DNA from: Paracoccaceae bacterium
Lineage (GTDB): Bacteria > Pseudomonadota > Alphaproteobacteria > Rhodobacterales > Rhodobacteraceae
Assembly (NCBI GenBank): GCA_007119835.1
Contig: SKOX01000159.1
Coordinates: forward strand, 1 to 29,964
Length of the DNA: 29,964 bases
Direction of reading: 5' to 3'
Part shown: positions 2,053 to 29,964 of the stretch, piece after piece
Layout: each line of letters begins with the position of its first letter
Numbering within the stretch: the first letter of the stretch is position 1
Made by a program: the position numbers and the translations under genes
The notes under the pieces: model-generated
Seen by the model: the letters and a program-made list of their open reading frames with translations, nothing else
What the model was told of the DNA's origin: nothing
Database searches by the model: none

Positions 2053-2090
2053 GGTTTCCCTTAGGAGCGGAAGGTTACCGGAACGTTGAC

Positions 2091-2120: not shown

Positions 2121-2131
2121 GCGCGGGACGG

Positions 2132-4761: not shown

Positions 4762-5244
4762 ATGGCAGAGGCTGCTGAGGCGAAAGCCGTGCCGGCCGGC
4801 GGGAACAGGGGGCTGATCGCGGGGCTTCTCGCGGCCGTCGTGCTTGGCGCGGGCGGCTTCGGCGCGGTCTGGGGCGAGTTCGTCGATCCCCGTGCCCTGA
4901 TCGGCGGCAAGGAGCCGGCACCGGCGGCCGTGGCGGCGCTCGAGAACATCGGCTTCGTCCCGCTCGAGCCGATCCTCGTCGCGATGCCGGAGACCGGCGC
5001 GGGACGGCATCTCCGCTTCGTCGGGCAGCTCGAGGTCGTTCCCGAGCATGCGGCCGAGGTGGTCTCGCTGATGCCGCGGATCACCGACGCGCTCAACACC
5101 TACCTGCGCGCGCTCGAGGCGCGCGACCTGCAGCAGCCTGCGGCGACCGTCTGGCTCAGGGCCCAGATGCTCCGCCGGATCCAGCTCGTCACCGGCGAGG
5201 GGCGGGTCCGCGACCTGCTGATTACCGAGTTCGTGTTCAACTAG
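4762..5244 (+). CDS. fliL: Flagellar basal body protein FliL
   Basis: FliL is an inner-membrane protein with a periplasmic domain that surrounds and supports the stator complex. The 160-residue product has a short Ala-rich cytoplasmic start, one membrane helix at about residues 17-38, and a periplasmic domain containing FVPLEPILVAMP, RHLRFVGQLEVVPEH and a C-terminal LLITEFVFN. This matches the FliL layout, including the short hydrophobic end. It is the first gene of the rightward arm and is followed 14 bases later by a GTG-started gene. Confidence 0.88.
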   Translation: MAEAAEAKAVPAGGNRGLIAGLLAAVVLGAGGFGAVWGEFVDPRALIGGKEPAPAAVAALENIGFVPLEPILVAMPETGAGRHLRFVGQLEVVPEHAAEVVSLMPRITDALNTYLRALEARDLQQPAATVWLRAQMLRRIQLVTGEGRVRDLLITEFVFN

Positions 5245-5258
5245 CGGAGACGCCCCTC

Positions 5259-5897
5259 GTGACGCTCATCATCGACGGCCTCCTGGTGGCGGCGGCGACC
5301 TTTGCCGGAACGTACTGTTTCGTGCTTGCGCGGCGGGTGCGCGCGCTCAAGGATCTCGACAGCGGCATCGGCGGCGCGATCACCCGGATGACGCAGGCGC
5401 TCGACGAGGCGCGACGGGCACTCGAGGAAGCGAAGGCCGCCGGTCGCGAGGAGCATCGCGACCTCCGGCAGCTGGTGTCGCGCGCGGAGGTCGCCTCGGC
5501 GCAGCTGCGCGTGCTGCTCGCCGCGACCCGGAACCTGCCCGAACCCGACAAGCGGCTCGAGCGGCAGCCCGAGTCGCGGCAAGCGCCGGAACCTCGTCCG
5601 CGGGCGGCAGGTGGCGAGGCGGAGGGCAATGCGCGCGCCGAGCAGGCGCAGGCATCCAGCTTCTGGGGGCAGGAAGAGGCGCCGCGTACAGCGGCGGGCG
5701 GTCGGCCAGTCGACCGCAGCGGCGGGAGCCAGAGGGAGCGTGTCCCGGCGAATGACGCCGTGCCCAAGCCCGCGCCCCTTCAACCAGCCCCTGCCCTGCT
5801 GCGCCAGCGCGTCGCGACGGCGCCCGTGGCGGCGCCGACCGATGAGGCCGACCTCCTCGCCGCGCTGGCCGACTTCGCCCACGCCGGGAGAAACTGA
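5259..5897 (+). CDS. Membrane-anchored coiled-coil protein of the flagellar arm (DUF6468-like)
   Basis: I do not recognise a characterised function. The 212-residue product starts at a GTG (5259) 14 bases after fliL. It has one N-terminal membrane helix (about residues 5-25) and a charged helical segment (about 30-90, rich in Glu, Arg and Ala) likely to form a coiled coil. A long Pro/Ala/Arg-rich disordered region and a short acidic end (DEADLLAALADFAHAG) follow. Position and layout recall alphaproteobacterial flagellar-locus proteins of the DUF6468 type and, more loosely, Caulobacter PflI, a flagellar positioning protein; this was not checked by alignment. The linked fliL and motE-like genes make a motor-related role likely. 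Confidence 0.6.
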   Translation: MTLIIDGLLVAAATFAGTYCFVLARRVRALKDLDSGIGGAITRMTQALDEARRALEEAKAAGREEHRDLRQLVSRAEVASAQLRVLLAATRNLPEPDKRLERQPESRQAPEPRPRAAGGEAEGNARAEQAQASSFWGQEEAPRTAAGGRPVDRSGGSQRERVPANDAVPKPAPLQPAPALLRQRVATAPVAAPTDEADLLAALADFAHAGRN

Positions 5898-5900
5898 GCC

Positions 5901-6464
5901 ATGGCTGCCCGAAGGAAAGGCGCCGCGATCGGCGGCGTCGCCTTGATCGCCATCTGCTTTCTCGCCTCCGCCGGATTGCGCCTCGGCGGCGTCGGCGTCG
6001 CGCTCGCCCAGGACGCCTTCGACGGCACGGGCGCGGAGGAAGCGGGATGCGCCGCCGACGCGCTCGATGAACTGCTCGCCGCGATCCGCGAACGGGAAGT
6101 GCAGCTCGAGCGCGAGAACGAGCGGCTCGCGGAGCGCCGCCAGACGCTGAACGTCGCAGAGGCCAAGCTTGCCGAACAGCTGGCGGCCTTCGAGGAGGCG
6201 CGTGCGGGGCTCGAGGAGACGCTGGCCATCGCCGACGGCGCGGCCGAGCGCGACATCGCCCGGATGACCGCCGTCTACGAGCACATGAAGCCGGAGGACG
6301 CGGCGCGGATCTTCGATCACATGGAGCTCTCCTTCGCCTCCGGCCTGCTCGTGCGCATGAAGCCGGAGAGCGCGGCGCAGGTGCTCACCGGGATGGAAGC
6401 CGACCGCGCCTACGCGATCACCCTGATGATCGCGAGCCGCAACGCGCGCGCCCCGACCGAATAG
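5901..6464 (+). CDS. MotE-like periplasmic motility protein
   Basis: In Sinorhizobium, MotE is a periplasmic chaperone for the motility protein MotC and is reported as a disulfide-linked dimer. The 187-residue product has an N-terminal export or anchor segment (residues 8-36, ending VALAQ), a Cys at residue 50 just after it, and a long charged coiled coil (about 58-110). The C-terminal domain (about 113-180) carries VYEHMKPEDAARIFDHM and LLVRMKPESAAQVLTGM, a repeat of the MgtE-N/FliG-like fold typical of MotE. The start ATG is four bases after the previous stop. It precedes motA by 236 bases. The family call is good; its partner here is unknown. Confidence 0.75.
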   Translation: MAARRKGAAIGGVALIAICFLASAGLRLGGVGVALAQDAFDGTGAEEAGCAADALDELLAAIREREVQLERENERLAERRQTLNVAEAKLAEQLAAFEEARAGLEETLAIADGAAERDIARMTAVYEHMKPEDAARIFDHMELSFASGLLVRMKPESAAQVLTGMEADRAYAITLMIASRNARAPTE

Positions 6465-6700
6465 ACGTGCTCGTGCGCTGGCCGGACGGCGCGCGATGCG
6501 CCGGCGGCGGCACGCGTGAAGACACTCATCTCTGGCAGCGCCGCCTTTCTTAAGACTCCGGAAAGGCTGCACTTTACCCATGCCGCAAGCGCTTCCGGCG
6601 CCGACCGTGACCCTTTTTTAATCCCGCTGCGCGATCACGGCCGGCGGGTGCGTGCCCGGAGCGGGGGCCCGGCACGAGCGAGCGTCAGCTGGGGGTGAGC
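6465..6700 (+). promoter_or_regulatory. Leader and probable promoter region of motA
   Basis: These 236 bases between the MotE-like gene and motA contain no convincing gene. The segment 6540-6625 is locally AT-richer (CTTTCTTAAG, CTTTACCCATG, CCCTTTTTTAAT), suggesting a promoter of its own. TTACCCAT at about 6587 resembles a CtrA half-site, but no full TTAA-N7-TTAA was found. TGGCAGCGCC at 6533 was considered as a sigma-54 -24 element, but the matching TTGC is missing. Confidence 0.35.
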
Positions 6701-7597
6701 ATGAACGGAATATTCGGACTGATCATCGTCTTTGCGATGGTCTTTGGCGGCTACCTGCTCGCCGGCGGCAAGCTCGGCATCATCCTCTACGCCCTGCCGT
6801 TCGAGATGATGATGATCGGCGGCGCGGCGGCGGGCGGGCTGATCATCGCCAACAGCCCCAGCGGCGTGAAGCACACGCTACGCGACCTCGCCAAGATCTT
6901 CCGCGGGCCGCGCTGGAAGCCCGCTGACTACCGCGACCTGCTCTGCCTGATGTTCCAGCTGCTCCGGATCCAGAAGTCGAACGCGATGGAGCTCGACGCC
7001 CACATCGAGGATCCGGCCGCGTCGCCGATCTTCGCCGCCTACCCCCGCATCCTCGCCGACAAGGAAGCCGTCTCGCTGATCTGCGACACGCTTAGGGCGG
7101 CGTCGATGAACTACAACGACCCGCACCAGGTCGAGGCTGTCCTCGAAAAGCGGGTCGAGGCGAACGCCCACGAGGCGCAGCACTCGTCGCACACGCTCCA
7201 GATCATGGCCGACGGCCTGCCCGCGCTCGGCATCGTCGCCGCCGTGCTCGGCGTGATCAAGACCATGGCCTCCATCGACCAGCCGCCCGAGATCCTCGGC
7301 CGGATGATCGGCGGCGCGCTCGTCGGCACCTTCCTCGGCGTCTTCCTTTCCTACGGCGTTGTCGGGCCCTTCGCGAACCGGCTGCGGACGGTCATCGACG
7401 AGGAGCAGACCTTCTACGGCCTGATCCGCGAAGTCATGGTCGCGAGCCTCTACCAGCACGCGCCGAACATCTGCGTCGAGGTCGGCCGCCAGAACACCCC
7501 CGCCCACTACCGCCCGAGCTTCAACGAGCTCGAGCAGGCCCTGCGAGCCGTCCGCGGCCAGGGCGCGCCGGCCAAGCCGCAGAGCCTCGCGGCATGA
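6701..7597 (+). CDS. motA: Flagellar stator protein MotA
   Basis: MotA is the stator subunit that, with MotB, couples ion flow to rotor torque through FliG. The product of about 298 residues has four membrane helices: two near the N-terminus (GIFGLIIVFAMVFGGYLLAGG and the adjacent LPFEMMMIGGAAAGGLII), then a large cytoplasmic loop, then LPALGIVAAVLGVIKTM and GTFLGVFLSYGVVGP. Both functional prolines of MotA (in GLPALG and VVGP) are present. ATG at 6701 directly follows GGGGGTGAG; a GTG two codons upstream (6695) is an alternative. Its stop overlaps the next start as ATGA. No motB is visible in the window. Confidence 0.94.
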   Translation: MNGIFGLIIVFAMVFGGYLLAGGKLGIILYALPFEMMMIGGAAAGGLIIANSPSGVKHTLRDLAKIFRGPRWKPADYRDLLCLMFQLLRIQKSNAMELDAHIEDPAASPIFAAYPRILADKEAVSLICDTLRAASMNYNDPHQVEAVLEKRVEANAHEAQHSSHTLQIMADGLPALGIVAAVLGVIKTMASIDQPPEILGRMIGGALVGTFLGVFLSYGVVGPFANRLRTVIDEEQTFYGLIREVMVASLYQHAPNICVEVGRQNTPAHYRPSFNELEQALRAVRGQGAPAKPQSLAA

Positions 7598-9915
7598 GGC
7601 GCACGCTGACTGCCCTCGCGCTGCTCGCCGGAGCCGGCGCGGCAGCGGCCCAGGAGGGCGGGCCGATCCGCACGGGCGAGCATGCGAGCTTCTCGCGCAT
7701 CGTCATGACGATCGTGCCGACCACCGAGTGGTCGCTTGAGATCGGCCCGCGCGAGGCGACCGTCGTCTTCCCCGGCCGCGAGATCGACTTCGGGACCGAG
7801 GAGGTCTGGCAGCGGATCCCGCGTACGCGCGTCACCGCGATCCAGCCGATGCGCCGTGAGGACGGCACTGCCGTGCGCGTCGCCCTCGGCTGCGACTGCC
7901 GGGTCACGGCATCCTTCGTCGGCGCGCGCCACCTCGCGCTCGACATCCACGACGGCGCGGCAAGCGCAGGCGCAGGCGCCGGGGCGACGGCGACCGCTGA
8001 CGGCGAAGACCCGTTGGCGGCCTCGGCGCTGGAGGATGGTGCGGCCGCCGCCCGGCCGTCGCTGGAAGAAGCCGAGCGCGGCCTGCGCGCGCAGATCGCC
8101 CGCGCAGCCGAGCAGGGCGTCATAACTTTGAACGACGAGGCGCCAGCGGAGGCAGAGGTCCGGAAGGTGGAGGCACAGACGCCTTCTCCGCCCGCACCGG
8201 CCGCCGACGCATCGTTCGGCCGCGAAGACCCGGACCATGCGGCAACCGGCCCTCTCGCTCGCCCGGCGGACGAGGCACCTTCGCAGCCGGCAGCGACGGC
8301 GGACGCGGGCTGGGAGGCGCTGCATGCCCAAGTGCAGGTCGAGGCCGCGACCGTGTTCGATCGCCACGGCGCTGGCCGTGCGACCGGGCCAGCCCCGCAC
8401 CCCGAGTGCCGGCCGGACGAGGTGTTCGACGTCGCGCGCTGGTCCGACGGCCGGCCGCTTCCCGACCAGGCGGTCGAGCTCCGCCGCCTCCTCGTCGGCG
8501 AGTTCGACCGGCCGAACGGCGCCGTCGTTCGCGATCTGGCGCGGCTGCACATCCGCTACGGCCTCGGCGCCGAGGCGGCCGAGATCCTGCGTGGCTTCGA
8601 CGCGGAGGTGGAGCACCGCGCGCTCCTGGCCGACCTTGCCCGCGTCGTCGAGAACCGCGCGCCGGACGGGCCTCTTGCCCGCGACATCGCCTGCCCCGGG
8701 CGGCACGGCCTCTGGCTCGCCAAGGCCGGTCAACCGGCGATGATCGCCTCGGAGCGGCATTTCCGCTCATTGCGCACGGCCCTCGAGGAGATGCCGCCGG
8801 CGCTGCGCGTCGTCGTGGGCTCCGAACTCGTCGGACGGTTCCTCGACGCCGGCCGCATCGCGCAGGCCCGCGTCCTGCATGACGTCGTGGTGAGGCCGGG
8901 AATGGAGGCCGACGCCGCCATGCGCCTCGCCTCGGGCCGCCTCGCGGCGGCCGAGCGGCGCCTGCCCGAAGCCGAAGCATGGCTGACGGGGCTCATCGAG
9001 GGGAACGCGCCCAATGCGGGCGACGCGGTGCTTGCCCTGGTTGGCGCCCGACTGGCGAGCGGCGCCGCTGTGCCCGACGCCTGGATCACCGATCTGCGCG
9101 TTCTCGCGCTCGAGCAGCGCCGCGGCGAGCGCGAGCCGCAGGCGCGCACGCTGATCGCCGAGGCGATGGTCCGAAACGGCGACCTGCGCGGCGCCTTCGG
9201 CGAGCTTGCCGCCCTCGCTGCAGACCGCCCGGAGTCGACCGGCGCCGTGGAGGCCGTGGCCGTCAGGCTGCTCGTGGAGGCCGAGCCGGAGAAGGTCGGG
9301 CGCGCGGCCTATGCCGAGGCCGCGATCGGCCACCGCGCGATGATGAGCGAGGCCGCGGCAAACGACGCGGCGCGCGTCACGGTCGCAACGCGGCTCCTCG
9401 AGCTCGGGCTTCCGGCACCGGCGCTCACGATGGTCGCTCCTGCCGAAGCGCGCGGGTCGCGAGCGGCGCGCATCGTCGCAGCACAGGCGCGGCTGGCGCT
9501 GGGGGAGAGCGCGGAGGCCCTCGAAACCCTGGCCGGGCTTGCCGGCGGCGACGTGGCTTCGCTCCGCGCCCGCGCCCATGCAATGGCGGGAGATTTCGCG
9601 GCCGCGGCCACGGAAGTGGAAGCGGCCGGGATGGCGGCGGCGGCCCCCTCCTACGCCTGGGCCGGCGGTGACTGGGCGCGGGCCGCAGGTTCGGCCGATC
9701 CCCTTCAGGCGGCGATGGCCGCGTGGATGGCCGGCGGAGCGGACGCGGAGACGCCTGCGGACCTGCCTGCGCCGCTCACGCCCGAGGCCGTGTTCCGCCT
9801 TCCCCTGCCCTCCGTGGAGCGGCCGTCCATTGCCGCCGCCCGGTCTCTCGTCGAGGGTGGACGCGATGTCGGCGGCGTTCTCGCCGCGATCCTAACCGAC
9901 ACGCCCGACGAGTGA
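7594..9915 (+). CDS. Large exported helical-repeat protein coupled to motA, function unknown
   Basis: I recognise no characterised family. The 773-residue product begins with a signal peptide (residues 1-20, ending AAAAQ). A beta-rich domain follows at about 28-120, with HASFSRIVMTIVP, a Cys pair in LGCDC and a closing HLALDIHDG, resembling AMIN-type or similar small envelope domains. Residues about 120-255 are an Ala/Pro/Glu-rich low-complexity linker. The rest (about 260-773) is Ala-rich and helical with a TPR/Sel1-like rhythm, with Cys in PECRPDE and IACPGRHG. Its ATG overlaps the motA stop (ATGA). With a MotE-like chaperone upstream, a role as a periplasmic stator accessory, functionally like MotC, is a reasonable inference but is not shown. 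Confidence 0.7.
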   Translation: MRRTLTALALLAGAGAAAAQEGGPIRTGEHASFSRIVMTIVPTTEWSLEIGPREATVVFPGREIDFGTEEVWQRIPRTRVTAIQPMRREDGTAVRVALGCDCRVTASFVGARHLALDIHDGAASAGAGAGATATADGEDPLAASALEDGAAAARPSLEEAERGLRAQIARAAEQGVITLNDEAPAEAEVRKVEAQTPSPPAPAADASFGREDPDHAATGPLARPADEAPSQPAATADAGWEALHAQVQVEAATVFDRHGAGRATGPAPHPECRPDEVFDVARWSDGRPLPDQAVELRRLLVGEFDRPNGAVVRDLARLHIRYGLGAEAAEILRGFDAEVEHRALLADLARVVENRAPDGPLARDIACPGRHGLWLAKAGQPAMIASERHFRSLRTALEEMPPALRVVVGSELVGRFLDAGRIAQARVLHDVVVRPGMEADAAMRLASGRLAAAERRLPEAEAWLTGLIEGNAPNAGDAVLALVGARLASGAAVPDAWITDLRVLALEQRRGEREPQARTLIAEAMVRNGDLRGAFGELAALAADRPESTGAVEAVAVRLLVEAEPEKVGRAAYAEAAIGHRAMMSEAAANDAARVTVATRLLELGLPAPALTMVAPAEARGSRAARIVAAQARLALGESAEALETLAGLAGGDVASLRARAHAMAGDFAAAATEVEAAGMAAAAPSYAWAGGDWARAAGSADPLQAAMAAWMAGGADAETPADLPAPLTPEAVFRLPLPSVERPSIAAARSLVEGGRDVGGVLAAILTDTPDE

Positions 9916-19388: not shown

Positions 19389-20936
19389 TCACCAGGTCAG
19401 GAACAAAAGCCCCGCCGCCAGGCAGATAACGATCACCGGAATCCCGGTGAGGCGCATCACCCTGCCCTCTCGGGCCTCGAGCCCGACAGCCCCGGCCGCC
19501 ATCGCGATGTTCGACAGCGAGATCATGTTGCCGACGCCGGCCCCGACGAGCTGGAGCGCGAGAAAGCTTGCCACCGGCGCGTCGAGGGCTTCCGCCGAGT
19601 CCGCCTGGAGGCCGGCGAACAGCAGGTTCGCCACGGTGGCGCTGCCGGTCATGAACGAGCCGATCGCCCCGAGAAACGGACTGAAGATCACGAAGGCGCC
19701 GCCGAGCCGATCGGCGAAGCCCTGACCGAGAACTTCGGGGATCGACGGCAGGCCGGCCTCGTTCACCTCCGACCACAGAAGAAGCTGCGTGAGCGCGATG
19801 ATGAAGATCAGGACGATCGAGGCGAGACGGAGCCGTCGGTAGGTCGCGGCGGCGGCCTCCCGCAGCGTCGCGCGCGTCACGTTGAAGACGAGCAGCGCGG
19901 TGATCAGGGCGAGGGCGAGATAGAAATAGGGCGTGTAGAGCGGCGACAGCTCCTGATCCAGCTCCAAGCCGCGGAACTCCCCGAACGAGAGCGTCACATC
20001 CTGCAACGTCTCGCGCAGGCCCGGCACGGTCCGCGAGACGATCAGGGCCAGCGCCATGACGGCGAAGGGAGCGAAGCTGCGCATGATGCCCGAGGGCGCG
20101 CCCTTCTTCTCCTCGGGTCCGCGATCCGTCGAGATCCCGCTCGACGGCAGCAGGAACCCGTGGCTGGCCGCGAGGCTGATCGCCAGGATCGCCGAAGCGC
20201 CACCGACGATCGCCGGCAATTCCGGCCCGACGAAATAGGCGATTGCGAGGTAGGGAAGGCTGAAGCTCAGCGCCGAGAAGACCGCGAACGGGACGAATTC
20301 GCGGAAGCGACCCTTCTCCGAGCCCATCGTGACCAGATACGCGATGAAGCAGGTCACGAGGATCGCCATCCCGGCATGGACGGCGGCGGCCTGGAAAACC
20401 GCGCTTGCCACCACATCCTCCGGCAGGTCCAGGCCGCGGAAGCCGATGACGACAGGCGTCCCGGCCGCGCCGAATGGCACGGCCGTGCTGTTGCCGATCA
20501 GCGAGATGGCGACGGCCTTGGTAAGGCTGAAGCCGAAGTGGACGAGCACGGGCGCGGCCAGCACGGCAGGCGTGCCGAAGCCCGCGATGCCTTCGACGAA
20601 GCCGACCAGCCCCCAGGCGAGCAGCATCGCCAGCACCCGGTCGTCCGAGGTGACGCGCGCCATCGACGTCTTGATGGTGTCGAGGGCGCCGGTCTCGATC
20701 ATGACGTTCAGCACCAGGAGCGCCACCGCGACGATCAGCAGGACCTCGGCGAAGACCACGAGCGCGTCGAGCAGGCTGGCCACGAAGACCGTGCCGGAGA
20801 TCTGCCAGACGCCGAAGGCGATGGCGACGGTGAGGGCGTAGCTGATCGGAGCGGCCTCGTAGGCCGGCCGCCGCAGGGCGATCAGAAGCACGAACAGGAC
20901 GACGAAGGGCAGCAGCGTGACGAGAAACAGGGCCAT
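19389..20936 (-). CDS. lctP: L-lactate permease family transporter
   Basis: The lactate permease family takes up lactate (and glycolate) with protons across the inner membrane. The 515-residue product is hydrophobic, with about 12-14 membrane helices. It contains family-typical segments such as GFVEGIAGFGTPAVLAAP (about 112-129), SLIGNSTAVPFGAAGTP and, near the end, FLGAIGSFMTGSATVANLLFAG and NMISLSNIAMAAGAVGL. It is somewhat shorter than the roughly 550 residues of E. coli LldP. It is the last gene of the leftward operon, 46 bases after the 2-hydroxyacid dehydrogenase, which makes a lactate or related 2-hydroxyacid substrate likely. Import or export direction cannot be told. Confidence 0.9.
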   Translation of the reverse strand: MALFLVTLLPFVVLFVLLIALRRPAYEAAPISYALTVAIAFGVWQISGTVFVASLLDALVVFAEVLLIVAVALLVLNVMIETGALDTIKTSMARVTSDDRVLAMLLAWGLVGFVEGIAGFGTPAVLAAPVLVHFGFSLTKAVAISLIGNSTAVPFGAAGTPVVIGFRGLDLPEDVVASAVFQAAAVHAGMAILVTCFIAYLVTMGSEKGRFREFVPFAVFSALSFSLPYLAIAYFVGPELPAIVGGASAILAISLAASHGFLLPSSGISTDRGPEEKKGAPSGIMRSFAPFAVMALALIVSRTVPGLRETLQDVTLSFGEFRGLELDQELSPLYTPYFYLALALITALLVFNVTRATLREAAAATYRRLRLASIVLIFIIALTQLLLWSEVNEAGLPSIPEVLGQGFADRLGGAFVIFSPFLGAIGSFMTGSATVANLLFAGLQADSAEALDAPVASFLALQLVGAGVGNMISLSNIAMAAGAVGLEAREGRVMRLTGIPVIVICLAAGLLFLTW

Positions 20937-20982
20937 TCGGCGTCCGATCCGGGTTGTGATCTGTGTCGGGTGCGGCGCGCCG

Positions 20983-21987
20983 CTACGAGCCCGCCACGTT
21001 CTGCGGCTCGCCGCGGAGGAAGCCCTCGATGTTGCCGCGGGTGGTCTCGAGGATGCGGTGGACGGCGTCGCGGGTGTTGAAGGCGCTGTGCGGTGTCACG
21101 ATCACGTTGCGCATTCGCAGCAGGAGGTGGTCGGCGAGAAGCGTGTCGAGCTTGTGCTTGTCGCGAAAGAAGGAGCGCAGAAGCTCGGCCTCCTCCCGCA
21201 CCGTCGGCTCCTCCGGCAGCACGTCGAGACCGGCCGCGGCGACACGACCATCGGAGAGCGCCTTGAGGAGCGCCTCGGTGTCGACGACGGTGCCGCGGGC
21301 GGTGTTGAGGAGCACCACCCCCGGCTTCATTGCGGCGAACTCGTCGTGGGAGATCATCTTCTCGGTGCCGCTTGTCGCGGGGACGTGGAGCGAGACGACG
21401 TCCGAGCGGGAGAGGAGCTCGGGCAAATCGACATACGTGAGGCCGGTCTCCTCGGCGAGCTCCTGTCGCGGCTTGGTGTCGAAGGCGAGCACCTCCATGC
21501 CGAAGCCCCGCGCGATCCGGGCGACGTTGCCGCCGATGTCGCCGGTGCCAACGACGCCCATCGTGCGGCCGTGCAGATCGAAGCCGCTGAGGCCCTGCAG
21601 CGAGAAGTCGCCGCGGCGGGTGCGGTCGACCGCCTCGACCAGCTGGTGCGAGATCGCGAGCAGCAGCGCGAAGGTGTGCTCGGCGACGACGTGGCCGCCA
21701 TAGGTCGGCACGTTCGCCACTGTGATGTCACGCTCGCCGCAGCGCTCGATGTCGATGTGGTCGACGCCGGTCGAGCGCGTCGCGATCAGCTTGAGCCGGT
21801 CGAAGCGGTCGAGCAGGTCGCGATCGAGCTGGGAGTAAATGAACACCGAGAGGATCTCGGCGTCGGCCACCTCCTGCGCGGCCTCCGCGTCGAGCTGGCC
21901 CTCGCGATAGACGATCTCGTGGTCCTTCTCGAGCGCGGCGAAGGCCTCGCGCTCCCAAGGCTCGATCTCGAACATGGCGATCTTCAT
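20983..21987 (-). CDS. D-2-hydroxyacid dehydrogenase, D-lactate type
   Basis: D-isomer-specific NAD-dependent dehydrogenases interconvert 2-keto and D-2-hydroxy acids. The 334-residue product has RSTGVDHID (71-79), the NAD-binding GTGDIGGNVA (147-156) with Asp170 at the end of the next strand (NAD rather than NADP), and the catalytic residues Arg231 (NTARGT), Glu260 (LPEEPT) and His300 (TPHSAFNT). The extended loop after LPEEP (residues about 262-290) is typical of D-lactate dehydrogenase-like members. The context (PEP synthase before it, lactate permease after it) supports pyruvate/D-lactate as the substrate pair. It begins 25 bases after ppsA. Confidence 0.88.
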   Translation of the reverse strand: MKIAMFEIEPWEREAFAALEKDHEIVYREGQLDAEAAQEVADAEILSVFIYSQLDRDLLDRFDRLKLIATRSTGVDHIDIERCGERDITVANVPTYGGHVVAEHTFALLLAISHQLVEAVDRTRRGDFSLQGLSGFDLHGRTMGVVGTGDIGGNVARIARGFGMEVLAFDTKPRQELAEETGLTYVDLPELLSRSDVVSLHVPATSGTEKMISHDEFAAMKPGVVLLNTARGTVVDTEALLKALSDGRVAAAGLDVLPEEPTVREEAELLRSFFRDKHKLDTLLADHLLLRMRNVIVTPHSAFNTRDAVHRILETTRGNIEGFLRGEPQNVAGS

Positions 21988-22012: not shown

Positions 22013-24406
22013 TCAGCCGCGGCGCCGCGCCTCGGCGGCGGCGACCTCGGTCTTCACCTTGAGGAAGCTGTCCGGGGTCACCGAGATCGAGTCGATCCCG
22101 GCCTCGACGAGGAAATGCGCGAAGTCGGGGTGGTCGCTCGGCACCTGCCCGCAGAGCCCGACCTTGGTGTCGTGCCGGTGCGCCTCCTCGATCAGGCGGG
22201 CGATCATCCGCTTCACGGCCGGGTCGCGCTCGTCGAACAGCGCCTTCAGCTTGTCGGAGTCCCGGTCGACGCCGAGCACGAGCTGGGTGAGGTCGTTCGA
22301 GCCGATGGAGAAGCCGTCGAAGCGCTCGGCGAACGCGTCGGCGAGGATGACGTTCGAGGGGATCTCGGCCATGACGTAGATCTGCAGGCCGGCGCGGCCG
22401 CGGATCAGGCCGTTGTCGCTCATCACCTGCAGGACGTGGTCGGCCTCGCCGACGGTGCGGCAGAACGGCACCATGACGATGACGTTCTCGAGGCCGATCT
22501 CCTCGCGCGCCTTGCGGATGGCGGCGCATTCCAGCGCGAAGCCGTCGCGGTAGTCCTCGTCGTAGTATCGGCTCGCCCCGCGCCAGCCGAGCATCGGGTT
22601 CTCCTCCTCGGGCTCGAACTGGCGGCCGCCGACGAGGTCGGCGTATTCGTTGGTCTTGAAATCGGAGAGCCGCACGATCACCGGGTTCGGGTGATGGGCG
22701 GCGGCGACGCGGGCGATGCCGCGGGCGAGCTTGTCGATGAAGTATTCGGGCTTCGACGGATAGCCGCGGGTCAGCGCCTCGATCTCCTTGCGCGCGTCCT
22801 TGTCCTCGACCTTGTCGAAATGGGCGAGCGCCATCGGGTGGACCTTGATCGCGTTGTTGATCAGGAATTCCAGCCGCGCGAGCCCGACGCCGTCGCTCGG
22901 CAGGCGCCACCAGCTGAAGGCGGCGGAGGGGTTGCCGATGTTGAGCATGATCTTGGTGTCGGTGTCGGGGATGTCGCTCAGGTCGACCTCCTCGACCTCG
23001 ATCTCGGCGATGCCGGCGTAGATGTGACCTTCGTCGCCCTCGGTACAGGAGACGGTGATCTCCTGCTTGTCCTTCAGGGTGCTGGTCGCCTTGCCGGTGC
23101 CGATGACGGCCGGCAGGCCGAGCTCGCGGCTGACGATGGCCGCGTGGGAGGTGCGCCCGCCGTGGTCGGTGACGATGGCGGCGGCGCGCTTCATCAGCGG
23201 CACCCAGTCGGGGTCGGTCTGGCCGGTGACGAGAATGCCGCCCTCGGGGAAGCGGTCGCCCTCCTTGGGGCTCTTGATTACATGCGCCTCGCCGGCCGCG
23301 GCGGCGTCGCCGATGCTCGTGCCGGTCAGCAGGCGCTCGCCGGTGCCCGAGACGTGGTAGGTCTCGATGCTGCCGCCGCCGCGGCGGGCCTGCACCGTCT
23401 CCGGGCGGGCCTGCACGATGAAGAGCCCGCCGGTCTCGCCGTCCTTGGCCCATTCGATGTCCATGGGCTGGCCGTAATGGTCCTCGATCTCGCAGGCCCA
23501 GCGGGCGAGCGTCAGCACCTCGTCGTCGGCGAGCACGAACGAGCCGCGCTCCTCATCGCTGGTCTTCGCGAGTTCCGAGGAGCCCTTGGCGGCGTAGACC
23601 ATCTTCTGCTCCTTGGAGCCCAGCCGCTTCTCGATGATCGGCCGCAGCTCGGGATTGCCCAGGAGCGGCTTGAAGACGTGGTATTCGTCCGGGTCGGCGG
23701 TGCCCTGCACGACGGTCTCGCCGAGGCCCCAGTTGCCGTTGATCAGCACCGTGCGGGGGAAGCCGGTCTCGGTGTCGATCGAGAACATCACGCCGGCGCC
23801 GGCCGTGTCGGCACGCACCATGCGCTGAACGCCGACCGAGAGCGCGATCTTCAGGTGATCGAATCCGCGGTCCTCGCGGTAGGCTATGGCGCGGTCGGTG
23901 AACAGCGAGGCGAAACAGCGCTTGCAGATCTCGAGGAGCTTGTCGGCGCCCTGGACGTTGAGAAAGCTCTCGAGCTGGCCGGCGAAGCTCGCCTCCGGCA
24001 GATCCTCGGCGGTGGCGGAACTGCGCACCGCGACGCTGAGGTCCTCCTCGCCGGCGTGCTGGCCCATCTCGGCGTAACAGCGCCGGATCTCCTCGACCAG
24101 CGCGGCGGGCATCTCGCCCTTGAGGATCAGCTTGCGGATTGCGTCGCCGACGGTGCGCAGGTTGCTGCGGTCGCCTTTCAGCTTGCCGATCTGCTCCGCG
24201 ATCCGATCCTGCAGTTCGTTGGCCTCGATGAAGGACCAGTAGGCCGTGGCTGTGGTGGCGAAGCCTTCCGGAACAGCGATGCCACGGTCACGCAGGGCCT
24301 TGATCATCTCCCCGAGCGACGAGTTCTTGCCCCCGACCCGGTCGGTATCCTCGCGGCCCAGGTCCTTGAACCAGGCGACCAGGGCTGCGTCATTGTCATC
24401 CGTCAT
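22013..24406 (-). CDS. ppsA: Phosphoenolpyruvate synthase
   Basis: PpsA converts pyruvate, ATP and water to PEP, AMP and phosphate, letting cells run gluconeogenesis from lactate or pyruvate. The 797-residue product has the family's length and order: the N-terminal ATP-grasp domain (GGKNSSLGEM, VRSSATAEDLP, SFAGQ), the swivelling phosphohistidine domain with His421 in GGRTSHAAIVSRELG, and the C-terminal PEP/pyruvate barrel with SIGSNDLTQ and catalytic Cys752 in GLCGQ. The ATG at 24404-24406 has GGAGG eight bases upstream and lies inside the end of the GH65 gene (11-base overlap), which implies coupled expression. Confidence 0.96.
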   Translation of the reverse strand: MTDDNDAALVAWFKDLGREDTDRVGGKNSSLGEMIKALRDRGIAVPEGFATTATAYWSFIEANELQDRIAEQIGKLKGDRSNLRTVGDAIRKLILKGEMPAALVEEIRRCYAEMGQHAGEEDLSVAVRSSATAEDLPEASFAGQLESFLNVQGADKLLEICKRCFASLFTDRAIAYREDRGFDHLKIALSVGVQRMVRADTAGAGVMFSIDTETGFPRTVLINGNWGLGETVVQGTADPDEYHVFKPLLGNPELRPIIEKRLGSKEQKMVYAAKGSSELAKTSDEERGSFVLADDEVLTLARWACEIEDHYGQPMDIEWAKDGETGGLFIVQARPETVQARRGGGSIETYHVSGTGERLLTGTSIGDAAAAGEAHVIKSPKEGDRFPEGGILVTGQTDPDWVPLMKRAAAIVTDHGGRTSHAAIVSRELGLPAVIGTGKATSTLKDKQEITVSCTEGDEGHIYAGIAEIEVEEVDLSDIPDTDTKIMLNIGNPSAAFSWWRLPSDGVGLARLEFLINNAIKVHPMALAHFDKVEDKDARKEIEALTRGYPSKPEYFIDKLARGIARVAAAHHPNPVIVRLSDFKTNEYADLVGGRQFEPEEENPMLGWRGASRYYDEDYRDGFALECAAIRKAREEIGLENVIVMVPFCRTVGEADHVLQVMSDNGLIRGRAGLQIYVMAEIPSNVILADAFAERFDGFSIGSNDLTQLVLGVDRDSDKLKALFDERDPAVKRMIARLIEEAHRHDTKVGLCGQVPSDHPDFAHFLVEAGIDSISVTPDSFLKVKTEVAAAEARRRG

Positions 24407-26882
24407 GGATTGCTGCCTCCGCTTGCTCGAGTTGCCGTCTGTTCTCATCGCACTGGCCACTGGCCCGCGCCGCCCGCTCGATCAGCTCGAACCGGGTGCG
24501 GGCGCCGGGGGCGAGTTGCCGGAAATGCCCGCGATAGCCGACCTGGACCGGCGCGGCCGCCGTCGGCTGCGCCGCGACCTCGACGCTCCTGCGGTCGGCA
24601 ATGATCTGGATGTCGTGCCCGCGGAAGTGGATCCGCAGCCGCAGCTCATCCAGACCCTCCGGCAGCAGCGGATTGACGAGCAGCGTTCCGCCGCGGACCT
24701 CGAGCCCGGTCAGGCAGCGCTGGAAGATGTCGACGGTGCCCGCCATGGCCCCGAGGTGGATGCCCTCCTGGGTGGTGCCGCCCTGGATGTCCGCGATATC
24801 CGCGTCGAGTGCGTGCCCCAGGAGCTTCCACGACATCGGCCGGTCGGACCGGATCAGCACCCAGGAGTGGACGACGAGGCTCAGCGTCGAGCCGTGCGAT
24901 GTTCGCGCGAGGTAGTAGTCGATGTTCTTCGTGATCCACCCCGGCTCGAAGCCGTAGCCAAGCCGCTCGAAAAGGAGGGCCAGTTCCTCCGTCGAGAAGA
25001 GGTAGAAGAGCATCAGCACGTCGGCCTGCTTCGAGGCCTTGTAGCGGTTCGGGCTGTCGCCTTCCGCGCCGAGGATGCGGTCGAGCCGGTGGATGTCCCC
25101 GTGTTTCTCGCGATAGCCGTCCCAGTCGAATTCCTCGAGCTTCTCGTAGCCCTCGAACTGGGAAATGATGCCGTCGCCGTGGAACGGAACGAACAGGCGG
25201 CGGCTGATCTCATCGTAGCGCGCAAGCTCCGCGTCGTCGATCCCGAGGCGCTCGCACAGCCGGTGGCGGGCCCGCGGGGGCAGGCTCTCGAGGACGTCCA
25301 CCGCATGCCGGAGGATGAAACACGCCATCACGTTGGTGTAGGCGTTGTTGTCGATACCGCGCTCCTCCTCCGGGGAAAGTCCGGGATAGCCGGTCTGGAA
25401 CTCGTCGGGACCCATCACCTCGCGGATGCCGAAGCGGCCGTCGGGGCGCTCCTCCGCGATCGAGGCCCAGAAGCGCGCGATCTCGAGGAACATCTCCGCG
25501 CCGTAGTCGCGCATGAACTCGCTGTCGGCCGTCACCTCGTAGTAGCGCCAGATGTTGTAGGCGATGGCGGCGTTGACGTGCCGCTGGCGGTGGGTGTTGT
25601 CGGGCACCCACTCCCCGGACTTCGGGTTGAGGTGCAGCACCTGGCTCTCCTCGCGGCCGTCGGAGCCGGACTGCCACGGGAAGAGCGCGCCCTCGAAGCC
25701 CTCTTCCCGCGCGTGCTTCCGCGCGGCGGCAAGCCGGCGGAAGCGGTACTTGAGCAGCGCGCGGGTGATGACCGGACGGCGCAGGTTGAGGAACGGCAGG
25801 ATGAAGAGCTCGTCCCAGAAGATGTGGCCGCGATAGGCCTCGCCGTGCCAGCCGCGCGCCGGCACGCCGATGTCACTGTCGATCGAGTTCTCCGAGACCG
25901 ACTGAAGCAGATGGAAGACGTGAAGCCTCAGCTTCATCTCGACCTCGTCGATCGGATGAAGCCGGATCACCATGTCGAAGTCGTCCCAGCGATCGTTCCA
26001 GGCCTCGGCGTGGGCGGCCAGCAGTTCATCGAAGCGCCCCGCAGCCGCGGCGGCCTCGCGCGCGGCGATCGCGGGTTCGGCGATGGCATTGTCCCGCGAG
26101 GTGAAGATCGCGACGATCTTCTCGACCGAGACCGCCTCGCCCTCTCCGAGATCGAGCCCGACGTCCTGCCCGATCCAGCCGTCGGCCCGTTCGGTCCGTC
26201 GCGCGACCTCGGCCAGCTCGCCATTGCGGTAGAGGCGCGTGCGCGCCGCCTCGACGATCTCGATCCGGGAGGTGTTGGTCCGCACGCGCAGGAGGATCAT
26301 TTCGTCCTGCGGCACGTCCGTCCCGAGTTGCTCCAGGTGCCGGTTCTCCAGCCCGCGGTAGCGGGCGACGTTGTCGTTGACCACCGTCCCGTCGAGCGCC
26401 GATCGGATCTCGAGCCGTCCCGACCAGTCTTCGGCGGTGATCTCGAGCGCGAGGCCCGCGAGGTGCTTCTCGGCCATGCTGACGAGGCGGCGCTCGTGCC
26501 AGCCGATCGTGCGCCCCTCGCCGTCGCGAAGGCGCAGGCGCCGCGTCAGGGTGCCGTCCCGCAGACAGAGTTCCTGCCTGTAGTCGAGAAGCTCGAGGTC
26601 GTCGATCCGGACCCACTCGCCGCCGTCGATCCGCAGCGTCAGCACGAGCCAGTTGGGCAGGTTGACGAGGTCCTCGTTCTCGATGTCGCGCCCCTCGACC
26701 TCGCTGGTCCGCCGGTTGTAAAGGCCCGCGACATAGGTGCCGGGATAATGCACGTCGTCTGCGGAGCAGTCCGGCGCCGCACCGCGGGTGCAGACATAGC
26801 CGTTGCCGAGCGTGCAGAGCGCCTCGTGCACGCCTTCCCGCTCCGGCTGGTAGCGATCGTAGGCAAGTGTCCAGTCGTTCAT
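24396..26882 (-). CDS. GH65 family disaccharide phosphorylase
   Basis: GH65 enzymes cleave alpha-glucosides such as trehalose, maltose or kojibiose with phosphate, giving beta-glucose 1-phosphate and a sugar. The 828-residue product has an N-terminal beta-sandwich (about 1-270), a helical-barrel catalytic domain (about 300-700) and a C-terminal beta domain. Key motifs are GHIFWDE (352-358), the catalytic acid Glu494 in VMGPDEF, KQADV (618-622), the phosphate-binding SHGSTLS (662-668) and GTTQEGIHLGAMAGT (702-716). The residue two after the catalytic Glu is Gln where GPDExH is usual. The start ATG (26880-26882) overlaps the mutase-phosphatase stop by four bases (ATGA). That neighbour makes trehalose the best guess for the substrate. 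Confidence 0.92.
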   Translation of the reverse strand: MNDWTLAYDRYQPEREGVHEALCTLGNGYVCTRGAAPDCSADDVHYPGTYVAGLYNRRTSEVEGRDIENEDLVNLPNWLVLTLRIDGGEWVRIDDLELLDYRQELCLRDGTLTRRLRLRDGEGRTIGWHERRLVSMAEKHLAGLALEITAEDWSGRLEIRSALDGTVVNDNVARYRGLENRHLEQLGTDVPQDEMILLRVRTNTSRIEIVEAARTRLYRNGELAEVARRTERADGWIGQDVGLDLGEGEAVSVEKIVAIFTSRDNAIAEPAIAAREAAAAAGRFDELLAAHAEAWNDRWDDFDMVIRLHPIDEVEMKLRLHVFHLLQSVSENSIDSDIGVPARGWHGEAYRGHIFWDELFILPFLNLRRPVITRALLKYRFRRLAAARKHAREEGFEGALFPWQSGSDGREESQVLHLNPKSGEWVPDNTHRQRHVNAAIAYNIWRYYEVTADSEFMRDYGAEMFLEIARFWASIAEERPDGRFGIREVMGPDEFQTGYPGLSPEEERGIDNNAYTNVMACFILRHAVDVLESLPPRARHRLCERLGIDDAELARYDEISRRLFVPFHGDGIISQFEGYEKLEEFDWDGYREKHGDIHRLDRILGAEGDSPNRYKASKQADVLMLFYLFSTEELALLFERLGYGFEPGWITKNIDYYLARTSHGSTLSLVVHSWVLIRSDRPMSWKLLGHALDADIADIQGGTTQEGIHLGAMAGTVDIFQRCLTGLEVRGGTLLVNPLLPEGLDELRLRIHFRGHDIQIIADRRSVEVAAQPTAAAPVQVGYRGHFRQLAPGARTRFELIERAARASGQCDENRRQLEQAEAAIHDG

Positions 26883-28449
26883 TCCATCGCCTCCCCGGCG
26901 ATTTCGTCCGCAAGCCACAGGAGGAAGCGCTCCACGGCATCGGTGTCCTCGAGGGCGAAGCGGGCGGAGGTGCGGCGATCCGCGCCGTCGCGCACCACGA
27001 CGCCGAGGCCGCGGTCGCTCAACGAGCGGAAGGCGTCCTCGTCGGTGGTGTCGTCGCCGACGTAGATCGGCAGGACGTCCGGGCGGTCGAGGTCGAGCTT
27101 CTTCAGCAGCGACAGCACGGCACGCCCCTTGTGCCAGTCGACGCGCGGCTTGATGTCGAAGACCTTCTTGCCGCCGGACGCACGCAGGTCGTCGTGCTGC
27201 GCGATCGTTTCCCGCACCGCGTCGGCGACCGTCGCCTCGTCGGCTTCGGAGACCTGCCGGAAATGCACCGCGAGCGAGAAACGCTTGCGCTCGACCCGGG
27301 CGCCTTCGACGGAGGCCAGCCGCTCCTCGAGGGCATCGCTGGCGGCTTCCAGGGTGGGGAGGAACGCTTCCCCCTTCTCCACCACCTCCTGCCAGCCGTT
27401 CGGGCCTGCGAGGTCGAAGCCGTGGCTGCCGGCGTAGTAGAGCTGGTCGTCCCGGACGAAACCCTGCACGTCCTTGAGGTCACGGCCGCTCACGATCGCG
27501 ACCGGCACCCGCGCGGCGAGGCGCGACAGGGCCGCTCGCATCCCTTCGCCAAGCGTCGCGTCCTCGGGGTTCTCCACGATCGGCGTCAGCGTACCGTCAT
27601 AGTCGAGGAAGACGGCGAGACGCTTGCCAGAAGCCTGCGCCTTGAAGGCGTCCCGCGCCTCCCGGACGAGCGGCGTCGAGCCGAGCGTGCGCGCGACCAG
27701 GCTCGGCCCCTCCGCGACGGCGAGCTCGGCCAGGTCTGCAACGACGAGATCGGCGCCGGCCTCTTCGAGCTCGGCCACGTCCTCGCGGCCGACGCCGATG
27801 ACCTTAGCGAAATCGCCGGCCGCGCCCGCCTCCACCCCGGAGACCGCGTCCTCGACGACCGCGCAGTTCCCGGGCGCCACGCCGAGCCGTTCGGCGGCGC
27901 GCAGCATGATCGCGGGGTCGGGCTTTCCGGGCAGGTCGGCCTCGGCCATGTCCTCGCCGTCGATCTTCACCTCGAACCGCTCGAGCATGCCCGCGCTGGC
28001 GAGCACGTCGCCGGCGTTCCGGCTGGAGGAGAAGACGGCGGCGCGTATTCCCGCACCTTCCAGATCGTCAAGAAGGGCGCGGCTGCCGGGGAACACAGCG
28101 ACCGCGTTCTCCGAAAGCCACTCCCTGAAGTGCCGGTTCTTGCGGTTGCCGAGCCCGCACACGGTCTCCGTGTCGGGACCGTCCTCCGGATCGCCGAACG
28201 GGAGCTCGATGCCGCGGGACTTCAGGAAGCTCTCCACGCCGTCGTAGCGCGGCTTGCCGTCGACATACCGCCGGTAGTCGGCCGCGGAGAACGGCTCGGC
28301 CGCGCTGTCGCGCTCGCGCAGATACGCGTCGAAAAGCCGCTTCCACGCAGCCATGTGGGCCTCGGCCGTGTCGGTGATCACGCCGTCCATGTCGAACAAG
28401 ACGGCTTCGAGCCGCATTCCGCCGGCCGGCCGATCCTTTCGCGGGACCA

Positions 28450-28450
<1 letters not shown>
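26879..28450 (-). CDS. Fused beta-phosphoglucomutase-like and trehalose-6-phosphate phosphatase protein
   Basis: A two-domain HAD protein of 523 residues. The first domain (about 14-240) is of the beta-phosphoglucomutase family: nucleophile Asp20 in FDMDGVITDT, SSSRN (141-145), Lys176 in PGKPDP, and Glu200-Asp201 in VVEDAVSG. The second (about 277-515) is of the OtsB type: nucleophile Asp283 in FLDYDGTL, VSGRDL (320-325), YAGSHGFDL (339-347) and GDDTTDEDAF (465-474). Together they could remove phosphate from trehalose 6-phosphate and turn beta-glucose 1-phosphate into glucose 6-phosphate. The ATG at 28448-28450 shares its A with the upstream ATPase stop (TGATG); Met12 is an alternative start. 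It overlaps the GH65 gene by four bases. No otsA is visible. Confidence 0.9.

Positions 28451-29964
<1,514 letters not shown>

What the first reader, a model, noticed from the sequence alone, without database searches (positions are those of the whole stretch)
24396..28450. Split, translationally coupled version of the mycobacterial OtsB1 architecture: mutase-phosphatase fusion plus GH65 phosphorylase
The two adjoining genes together carry beta-phosphoglucomutase, trehalose-6-phosphate phosphatase and GH65 domains in the order of the three-domain mycobacterial OtsB1 (Rv2006 type), joined here by an ATGA overlap. The set could take trehalose 6-phosphate to trehalose, then beta-glucose 1-phosphate and glucose 6-phosphate. 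This would be a full trehalose turnover route encoded as one coupled pair. Motifs are seen; the pathway is inferred.
Basis: partly seen in the sequence, partly recalled or inferred. Interest (0 to 1): 0.72.

Follow-up and report, generated by a model that had tools for sequence, protein, structure and literature searches.

The report
Trehalose module: mutase-phosphatase plus phosphorylase
Two overlapping bacterial genes carry three enzymes that meet at trehalose 6-phosphate and may together make the stress sugar trehalose from ordinary glucose 6-phosphate without the usual activated sugar UDP-glucose, a use that would also suggest a job for the tuberculosis-family protein OtsB1, whose function is unknown.

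Summary
In detail: on the minus strand a 523-aa beta-phosphoglucomutase/T6P-phosphatase fusion (28450-26879) overlaps an 828-aa GH65 enzyme (26882-24396) by ATGA, with the catalytic residues checked intact. The GH65 lacks the published trehalose-phosphorylase fingerprint (TRIGPP). It carries that of trehalose-6-PHOSPHATE phosphorylases (DQGQ.E), shares two extra arginines with them and joins their clade (100/100). So all three activities meet at T6P; they do not form a T6P -> trehalose -> G1P chain. The three domains occur together in 57 of 80 sampled loci from 12 named phyla, 48 of them in this two-gene form. Of the 80 genomes, 28 lack OtsA and none of those 28 has a trehalose PTS, yet 25 of these loci keep an OtsB whose active-site positions are almost fully conserved. 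The visible T6P source there is the GH65 run backwards. I therefore favour nucleotide-sugar-free trehalose synthesis (2 G6P -> trehalose + 2 Pi), reversible up to T6P. Direction is inferred, not shown. The window's own genome has OtsA and TreY, so T6P recycling stays open there. The one T6P review seen lists T6P phosphorylase only under degradation.

The parts
26879..28450 (-). Fused beta-phosphoglucomutase (about residues 13-245) and trehalose-6-phosphate phosphatase (about residues 275-515), 523 aa
   Evidence: PF00702/TIGR02009 and PF02358/TIGR00685; AlphaFold model pLDDT 90.6 matching OtsB2 (5gvx) and a solved beta-PGM (8h5s); mutase residues D20 D22 T28 H32 R68 K104 S141 K176 E200 D201 and phosphatase residues D283 D285 T287 S321 R323 R388 K441 D466 D467 D470 present
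24396..26882 (-). GH65 glycoside phosphorylase, 828 aa; predicted trehalose-6-phosphate phosphorylase (fingerprint D71 Q404 G406 Q414 E607; general acid E494; phosphate site S665 T666 H709; candidate 6-phosphate ligands R599 R602 H417)
   Evidence: PF03636/03632/03633; fingerprint and residues; best PDB match 9lb6 by sequence and by fold
26879..26882 (-). ATGA stop/start overlap joining the two genes
   Evidence: sequence; an overlap of about 4 bases is the commonest spacing (24 of 59 loci with an estimated gap)
22013..24406 (-). PEP synthase (pyruvate, water dikinase), start overlapping the GH65 stop by 11 bases; possible gluconeogenic partner
   Evidence: TIGR01418 1097.7 bits against a cut-off of 739.75; a PEP synthase lies directly beside the module or its GH65 in 7 of 80 loci: L004, L011, L016, L019, L045, L056, L083
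28450..29964 (-). 3' part of a Ca2+-type P-type ATPase (runs off the window), stop sharing one base with the mutase-phosphatase ATG
   Evidence: PF00689; best NCBIfam TIGR01522/TIGR01116 (partial, below cut-off); similar ATPase directly upstream in L004, L005, L016, L020
20983..21987 (-). D-isomer 2-hydroxyacid dehydrogenase, same strand downstream
   Evidence: PF02826/PF00389
19389..20936 (-). Lactate permease family transporter, same strand downstream
   Evidence: PF02652 1e-82; TIGR00795 below cut-off

Best explanation
The pair encodes a T6P module. The mutase domain interconverts glucose 6-phosphate and beta-glucose 1-phosphate; the GH65 is a T6P phosphorylase (T6P + Pi <-> beta-G1P + G6P); the phosphatase domain turns T6P into trehalose irreversibly. 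With the phosphatase as the pull, the net reaction is 2 G6P + H2O -> trehalose + 2 Pi: trehalose synthesis without UDP-glucose or OtsA. Where OtsA is also present, as in the window's genome, the same reversible enzymes can return surplus T6P to G6P. Shown here by sequence: domains, catalytic residues, T6P-type fingerprint, conserved linkage, and the trio in genomes where no OtsA was found. Inferred: substrate, kinetics, net direction.
For: (1) Fingerprint DQGQ.E identical to PDB 9lb6 and to the published T6P-phosphorylase motif, which correctly predicted the tested enzyme CaGP; the same panel separates kojibiose-, maltose- and trehalose-type rows. (2) One 100/100 clade with 9lb6 and a Pediococcus GH65, trehalose-type rows outside. 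(3) R602 kept in 61 of 62 OtsB-linked GH65s (1 gap) and H417 in 62 of 62; R602 is Leu in the 3 fused mutase-GH65 proteins without OtsB that were checked. (4) 28 of 80 genomes show no GT20, including 23 of the 57 with the full trio; 0 of these 28 have a trehalose PTS; none carries a second T6P phosphatase (0 of 28 against 21 of 52); the OtsB of 25 GT20-less loci is conserved at ten checked positions apart from one Thr-to-Ser, one Arg-to-Lys and one row gapped at three positions. (5) An evenly drawn genome, 100% complete, has the trio and no GT20 (G427). (6) PEP synthase directly beside it in 7 of 80 loci; class I FBP aldolase and GAPDH upstream in two of ten neighbours examined. (7) The reaction runs toward T6P in vitro with L. 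lactis T6P phosphorylase (PMC13121652).
Against: No activity was measured. The window's genome has one GT20 OtsA and a TreY, so it does not need this route, and its OtsB domain may simply serve OtsA. TreY is over the cut-off in 21 of 30 GT20-less genomes, including all six isolates among them, and TreT is present in 8 of 30, so trehalose is usually available by other means; TreS was not searched. Many GT20-less genomes are MAGs: L041 lacks GT20 while the nearly identical L042 has it, a likely false negative. In the evenly drawn set only 2 of 9 genomes with the fusion lack GT20. Four unfused mutase|GH65 loci without a neighbouring OtsB keep the T6P residues, all in GT20-bearing genomes, which fits T6P breakdown. 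Gluconeogenic neighbours are a minority, and PfkB-type sugar kinases are also neighbours (4 of 93). The beta-PGM equilibrium favours G6P (recalled). 9lb6 is named 'hydrolase' and 'phosphatase' in the PDB; its identity as a phosphorylase rests on a cited title (paper not held) and on the fingerprint.
Confidence: 0.58

Rival explanations
1. T6P recycling: OtsA makes T6P; the OtsB domain finishes trehalose, while GH65 + mutase return surplus T6P to 2 G6P, so the pair balances T6P and trehalose or guards against T6P build-up.
For: The own genome has OtsA on contig C151 and no other T6P phosphatase domain; 52 of 80 and 7 of 9 genomes have GT20; GT20 lies directly upstream of the trio in L058; 4 of 80 loci have mutase|GH65 without OtsB, all in GT20-bearing genomes and with T6P residues kept; a review lists TrePP as T6P degradation (PMC12125463).
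Against: It does not explain the 28 genomes with no GT20 and no trehalose PTS found, 25 of whose loci keep an OtsB with a conserved active site; PEP synthase beside the module in 7 of 80 loci points to gluconeogenesis.
Confidence: 0.27
2. One reading: OtsB makes trehalose, a trehalose phosphorylase splits it to beta-G1P + glucose, and the mutase makes G6P.
For: Mutase + GH65 pairs with trehalose-type residues (T, R and P at the three positions that align) exist on Rhodococcus and Streptomyces plasmids, also with a 4-base overlap; TreY/TreT could supply trehalose in most OtsA-less genomes.
Against: The window GH65 reads DQGQ.E and lies in the T6P clade; the trehalose-type rows lack R599/R602; an OtsB domain would have no visible substrate in OtsA-less genomes.
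Confidence: 0.08
3. The GH65 is a hydrolase or acts on another alpha-glucoside (kojibiose, nigerose, glucosylglycerol and so on), and the neighbourhood is incidental.
For: One source names many close relatives alpha,alpha-trehalase.
Against: Phosphorylase-type phosphate site HGSTLS and H709, as in 9lb6; hydrolases have Pro-Ala plus a general-base Glu there; kojibiose-, maltose- and glucosylglycerol-type rows fall outside its clade.
Confidence: 0.04

Closest known systems
OtsB1 (Rv2006-type mutase-OtsB-GH65 protein of mycobacteria and relatives)
   Same: OtsB1 function is stated as unknown in PMC11046441 (passage).
   Different: Two polypeptides here, and the mutase domain is intact; in the Rhodococcus protein as annotated the mutase residues checked are missing or replaced. 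The Rv2006 sequence itself was not compared.
Lactococcus/Weissella/Pediococcus T6P phosphorylase (TrePP, EC 2.4.1.216) with beta-PGM
   Same: Same GH65 subtype fingerprint and same extra arginines in the Weissella and Pediococcus rows; same two-enzyme T6P <-> 2 G6P chemistry.
   Different: 34% (9lb6) and 37% (Pediococcus) identity to the window; there T6P comes from sugar uptake and is catabolised (recalled; title of Andersson et al. 2001 seen); here a T6P phosphatase is fused to the mutase, and no trehalose PTS was found in the 28 OtsA-less relatives.
Actinobacterial beta-PGM|GH65 trehalose-phosphorylase-type pairs (L100, L101)
   Same: Mutase gene overlapping a GH65 gene by 4 bases.
   Different: Trehalose-type residues, separate clade; no OtsB gene annotated in the stretch fetched.
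OtsAB pathway
   Same: Ends with T6P phosphatase making trehalose.
   Different: OtsA needs UDP- or ADP-glucose; the module would use beta-G1P made from G6P.

Membership tests
T6P phosphorylase (GH65, EC 2.4.1.216) | Specificity fingerprint at CsKP positions 64/392/394/402/416/585 (DQGQDE in PMC8537180) | tested here: met
   D-Q-G-Q-.-E, identical to 9lb6 at the aligned positions; position 416 aligns ambiguously (W, gap, with D two residues on)
T6P phosphorylase (GH65, EC 2.4.1.216) | Inverting phosphorylase chemistry: general acid Glu and phosphate site | tested here: met
   E494; HGSTLS and H709 as in 9lb6 (HGSTTS, H); Ser-Thr instead of the Ser-Ser of kojibiose phosphorylase
T6P phosphorylase (GH65, EC 2.4.1.216) | Activity on T6P + Pi | not testable with these tools
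   needs an enzyme assay
Trehalose phosphorylase (GH65, EC 2.4.1.64) | Fingerprint TRIGPP and its clade | tested here: not met
   window DQGQ.E; rows L100, L101 (T, R, P) and L105 (S, R, P), three of six positions gapped, fall in another clade; no enzyme of proven trehalose specificity was in the panel
beta-phosphoglucomutase | HAD catalytic set (L. lactis D8, D10, T16, H20, R49, K76, S114, K145, E169, D170; numbering recalled) | tested here: met
   all ten in the window; of 64 rows, eight positions invariant, one T to S once, one S to T in nine rows; subfamily TIGR02009 met, equivalog TIGR01990 below cut-off (110.5 against 189.4 bits)
Trehalose-6-phosphate phosphatase (OtsB) | TIGR00685 and HAD motifs DxDGT, SGR, K, GDDxTDED | tested here: met
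   191.8 bits against a cut-off of 68.05; motifs intact
OtsB1 architecture | mutase-OtsB-GH65 in this order | tested here: met
   as two coupled genes
OtsB1 architecture | single polypeptide | tested here: not met
   stop and start ATGA between OtsB and GH65
OtsB1 architecture | sequence relationship to Rv2006 itself | not tested
   Rv2006 was not fetched; Rhodococcus fused proteins were used instead
UDP-glucose-free trehalose synthesis module (proposed) | trio retained where no other T6P source is encoded | tested here: inconclusive
   28 of 80 genomes without GT20, 0 of 28 with trehalose PTS, one evenly drawn 100%-complete genome without GT20; but MAG gaps exist (L041/L042) and a GT4-type TPS was not searched for

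The most novel reading that the evidence does not exclude
The mutase / T6P phosphorylase / T6P phosphatase trio is a natural, nucleotide-sugar-free trehalose biosynthesis pathway (2 G6P -> trehalose + 2 Pi), spread by lateral transfer over many bacterial phyla and at least one archaeon, in places beside gluconeogenic genes and, on actinobacterial plasmids, near universal stress proteins; OtsB1-type fusions are one-polypeptide versions of it, which would suggest a role for that orphan protein under low oxygen.
Probability: 0.48. Interest if true: 0.78.

Novelty: new variant of a known kind. Interest (0 to 1): 0.6.

Why it matters
If the direction is right, bacteria have a further trehalose route that saves a nucleotide triphosphate per molecule, which could matter in energy-poor, salty or low-oxygen settings; a 2026 paper calls a related in vitro T6P-phosphorylase route 'new-to-nature' (PMC13121652, abstract and passages). 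It also turns an open question, what OtsB1-type proteins do (PMC11046441, passage), into a short list of in vitro assays, and it warns against the label 'alpha,alpha-trehalase' that one source gives to many of these GH65s.

Tried and rejected
Rejected: trehalose phosphorylase, kojibiose or maltose phosphorylase, and hydrolase readings of the GH65. Rejected: trehalose PTS as T6P source in OtsA-less genomes (0 of 28). Considered unlikely but not searched: a GT4-type T6P synthase; PMC7688234 (passages) reports a narrow, mainly Sulfolobales distribution. TreS was not searched in any genome.

Led nowhere or weak: the AlphaFold model of the GH65 is poor around the active site (mean pLDDT 71; residues 332-359, 404-432, 662-669, 693-714 under 50), so no ligand geometry was attempted; fold search only confirms 9lb6 as best match. 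A Pfam scan of 93 nearest neighbours (one each side of the trio loci, proteins over 700 aa left out, simple frame calling) gave no dominant partner: PfkB 4 of 93, response regulator 4 of 93, GT20 2 of 93. In the 397-genome phylum draw only 3 genomes, one of them the window's own, had the fusion at E <= 1e-60, so that draw adds little weight. Mirror-tree correlations are not corrected for shared species history. The tree warns that the long 9lb6 and outgroup branches may attract; the panel (more outgroup rows, careful method, mixture model off) again puts 9lb6 with the trio group. Neither changes the odds.

Not in print: a natural synthetic role for T6P phosphorylase beside OtsB was not seen in the listings of nine paper searches (each listing shows at most 12 to 40 papers); most subscription papers are not held. 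Papers: PMC8537180 was read in parts 1-2 of 7 plus passages; PMC8626586, PMC11046441, PMC13121652, PMC12125463, PMC8950772, PMC7688234, PMC2867773, PMC4916473 and PMC3518184 were seen as passages only; Feng et al. 2025 (J Agric Food Chem) was seen only as a reference-list entry.
Full report
WHAT IS THERE. On the minus strand, 28450..26879 encodes a 523-aa protein with a beta-phosphoglucomutase-type HAD domain and a trehalose-phosphatase domain, and 26882..24396 encodes an 828-aa GH65 protein with all three GH65 Pfam domains. They share the bases ATGA. The upstream P-type ATPase stop shares one base with the fusion's ATG, and the GH65 stop overlaps the ATG of a PEP synthase by 11 bases; a 2-hydroxyacid dehydrogenase and a lactate permease follow on the same strand.

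STATE OF THE ENZYMES. At ten positions equivalent to the L. lactis beta-PGM active site (numbering recalled) the window is complete. Across 64 rows (window + 63 loci) eight positions are invariant, one has a single Thr-to-Ser and one has Ser-to-Thr in nine. Across 63 OtsB rows (window + 62 loci) the S, R, K and three Asp positions are invariant; the two Asp and the Thr of DxDGT are gapped in two rows and the Thr is Ser in one; Arg 388 differs in seven. An AlphaFold model of the fusion (pLDDT 90.6) best matches OtsB2 (5gvx) and Rv3400 (8h5s; named beta-phosphoglucomutase) among solved structures.

WHAT THE GH65 ACTS ON. PMC8537180 gives six specificity-determining positions: trehalose phosphorylase TRIGPP, T6P phosphorylase DQGQDE, kojibiose phosphorylase EEAPxx, maltose phosphorylase KV[MF]NES; the T6P prediction was tested there on CaGP and held. 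The window reads D-Q-G-Q-(W or gap)-E, the same as PDB 9lb6 in the same alignment; position 416 is ambiguous in the loop. Of 96 aligned rows 76 read DQGQWE. A panel of 30 GH65s reproduced the classes: three plasmid sequences with EEAP; two with K, V, S and three (L100, L101, L105) with T/S, R, P at the three positions that align, the other three being gapped; and window, trio loci, 9lb6 and a Pediococcus GH65 in one clade of 20 rows at 100/100. Arg 599 and Arg 602 are shared with 9lb6 and absent from the ten rows outside that clade; His 417 is shared with 9lb6 and is Tyr and Phe in the two outgroup structures. R602 is kept in 61 of 62 OtsB-associated GH65s (one gap, L014, whose frame is short) and H417 in 62 of 62. 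In the fused mutase-GH65 proteins without OtsB that were checked, R602 is Leu in 3 of 3 (L054, L080, L094) and H417 is changed in the two examined, whereas the four unfused mutase|GH65 pairs keep both. That is what a 6-phosphate contact lost together with the phosphatase could look like, on a small sample. The phosphate site (HGSTLS, H709) matches 9lb6 and not the hydrolases, which have Pro-Ala and a general-base Glu (PMC8626586). A caution: 9lb6 (Weissella ceti) is labelled 'trehalose-6-phosphate hydrolase' and 'phosphatase' in the PDB; I link it to the T6P-phosphorylase structure paper only through a cited title and through its fingerprint.

HOW WIDESPREAD AND IN WHAT FORM. By stop-to-stop frames: fusion|GH65 48; all three fused 5; mutase|OtsB|GH65 4; mutase|GH65 4; mutase-GH65 fused 2; OtsB-GH65 fused 2; OtsB|GH65 3; GH65 alone in the stretch 12. 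The commonest spacing, estimated from the alignments, is a 4-base overlap, 24 of 59 loci. The nine fused rows of all kinds need seven label changes on the GH65 tree, at least four of them forced by well-supported branches, so fusion or fission happened repeatedly. Pairwise distances of GH65, OtsB and mutase correlate at 0.71-0.75 over 58 rows (0 of 2000 permutations as high; not corrected for common descent). In genomes drawn evenly the fusion is rare: 8 of 289 in the class, counting matches below 1e-100 that cover both domains (a further genome, G148, has the two domains as neighbouring genes and was not followed), and 3 of 397 in the phylum at E <= 1e-60, the window's own genome being one in each and one more being shared. 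Of the 9 distinct genomes, 8 have the GH65 directly after it. Several copies sit on plasmids. Patchiness and plasmids point to lateral transfer.

WHERE DOES T6P COME FROM. GT20 (OtsA) was found in 52 of the 80 genomes, counting every match over the cut-off, and not in 28; of 57 genomes with the full trio, 23 lack it. A trehalose PTS was found in 0 of those 28. T6P-phosphatase domains: none of the 28 has two or more, 27 have one and one has none; 21 of 52 GT20-bearing genomes have two or more (Fisher p = 2.7e-5, not corrected for relatedness). The OtsB of the 25 GT20-less loci that have one is conserved at the ten checked positions apart from one Thr-to-Ser, one Arg388-to-Lys and one row gapped at three positions. 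Isolates without GT20 include Thioalkalivibrio denitrificans, T. thiocyanoxidans, Kineobactrum sediminis and Pseudomonas profundi with the full trio, plus Desulfobulbus alkaliphilus and Marinobacter orientalis with part of it in the fetched stretch. Among the 9 evenly drawn genomes 2 lack GT20, one of them 100% complete (G427). If the phosphatase domain works in these cells, the visible T6P source is the GH65 next to it, run in the synthetic direction.

AGAINST THIS. L041 lacks GT20 but its near-copy L042 has it, so some absences are assembly gaps. Trehalose is usually obtainable otherwise: TreY over cut-off in 21 of 30 GT20-less genomes (all six isolates named above among them) and in the window's own, TreT in 8 of 30, in T. 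thiocyanoxidans directly upstream of the trio. By subtraction nine GT20-less genomes show neither (G016, G318, G326, G336, G337, G339, G345, G348, G368); G326 is the doubtful L041 genome and G339 has a TreY fragment at a contig end; TreS was not searched. A GT4-type T6P synthase was not searched for; it is reported as mainly Sulfolobales (PMC7688234). Four mutase|GH65 loci without OtsB, all in GT20-bearing genomes, keep the T6P residues, which fits T6P breakdown. The window's genome (85% complete) has one OtsA, one GH65 and this single T6P phosphatase domain, so here OtsB may serve OtsA and the GH65 may recycle T6P.

DIRECTION. A PEP synthase, whose usual role is gluconeogenic, lies directly beside the module or its GH65 in the window and in 7 of 80 loci (downstream in L004, L011, L016, L019, L056, L083; upstream in L045), within 4 kb on the other strand in L024, with one further weak match in L044; a 2-hydroxyacid dehydrogenase is immediately downstream in L045 and L048. 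Of ten same-strand neighbours examined, two were class I FBP aldolase (L015) and GAPDH (L017), one TreT (L059), one GT20 (L058) and one a trehalase (L066). These are minorities, and aldolase, GAPDH and the PfkB kinases (4 of 93) do not fix a direction. In vitro, L. lactis T6P phosphorylase makes T6P in high yield from maltose and polyphosphate (PMC13121652; 93% and Keq 760 as that paper states). From stoichiometry (established knowledge), 2 G6P + H2O -> trehalose + 2 Pi spends no UTP, against one per trehalose by OtsAB.

COMPARISON. A 2024 review states that only OtsB2 of M. tuberculosis has phosphatase activity, that a delta-otsB1 mutant has no obvious phenotype and that its function is unknown (PMC11046441). 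OtsB1 is counted as a DosR-regulon gene and rises in hypoxia, as does the cation ATPase gene ctpF (PMC2867773, PMC4916473); the window also has a cation ATPase gene joined to the same gene string, which may be coincidence. Rhodococcus plasmid proteins show OtsB and GH65 of the T6P type with universal stress protein genes nearby, but in the 1188-aa protein as annotated the mutase residues checked are missing or replaced. So this is built like OtsB1, with an intact mutase and two polypeptides; I did not compare Rv2006 itself. A 2025 review lists T6P phosphorylase only under degradation (PMC12125463, passages), and nine paper searches listed no natural synthetic role.

VERDICT. Real, widespread, correctly spotted; the pathway should be redrawn around T6P. 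GH65 = T6P phosphorylase: about 0.85. Net trehalose synthesis as the main purpose of the module across its range: about 0.5-0.6. All known enzyme kinds, in a combination whose use I did not find in the literature I could search.

Noticed in passing
window 28450-29964: The P-type ATPase upstream carries a C-terminal tail of roughly 150 residues extremely rich in Lys/Glu/Asp/Arg after its last membrane domain; a TolA-like match there is probably composition only.
   Followed up: no
window 19389-21987 and 22013-24406: Lactate permease, 2-hydroxyacid dehydrogenase and PEP synthase run on the same strand behind the module; one or more of these three recur near the module in other lineages (L019, L024, L045, L048, L080, Indioceanicola plasmid L093).
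   Followed up: partly
L054, L080, L094: Mutase-GH65 fusions without OtsB have lost the conserved arginine R602 (to Leu), and H417 in the two examined; they may be a sub-group with another substrate.
   Followed up: partly
L100 and L101 (Rhodococcus and Streptomyces plasmids): Trehalose-phosphorylase-type GH65 genes overlap a mutase gene by 4 bases, a parallel coupling of mutase to a different GH65 specificity.
   Followed up: partly
L108 (Rubrobacter radiotolerans plasmid) 4001-8208: otsB, a T6P-type GH65 and a polyphosphate kinase 2 family gene in a row: a possible polyphosphate-linked trehalose set.
   Followed up: partly
L092, L096, L106: On actinobacterial plasmids OtsB-GH65 fusions or the GH65 sit near universal stress proteins and SHOCT or dsRBD-fold genes, in L092 also near hydrogenase genes; in M. 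tuberculosis otsB1 belongs to the DosR regulon.
   Followed up: partly
PDB 9lb6: The GH65 from Weissella ceti is labelled hydrolase in one field and phosphatase in another, though its residues and a cited paper title say phosphorylase.
   Followed up: partly
window 260-7597: Flagellar genes (fliG, fliP, fliF on minus; fliL, motA on plus) occupy the other end of the window; nothing unusual seen.
   Followed up: no
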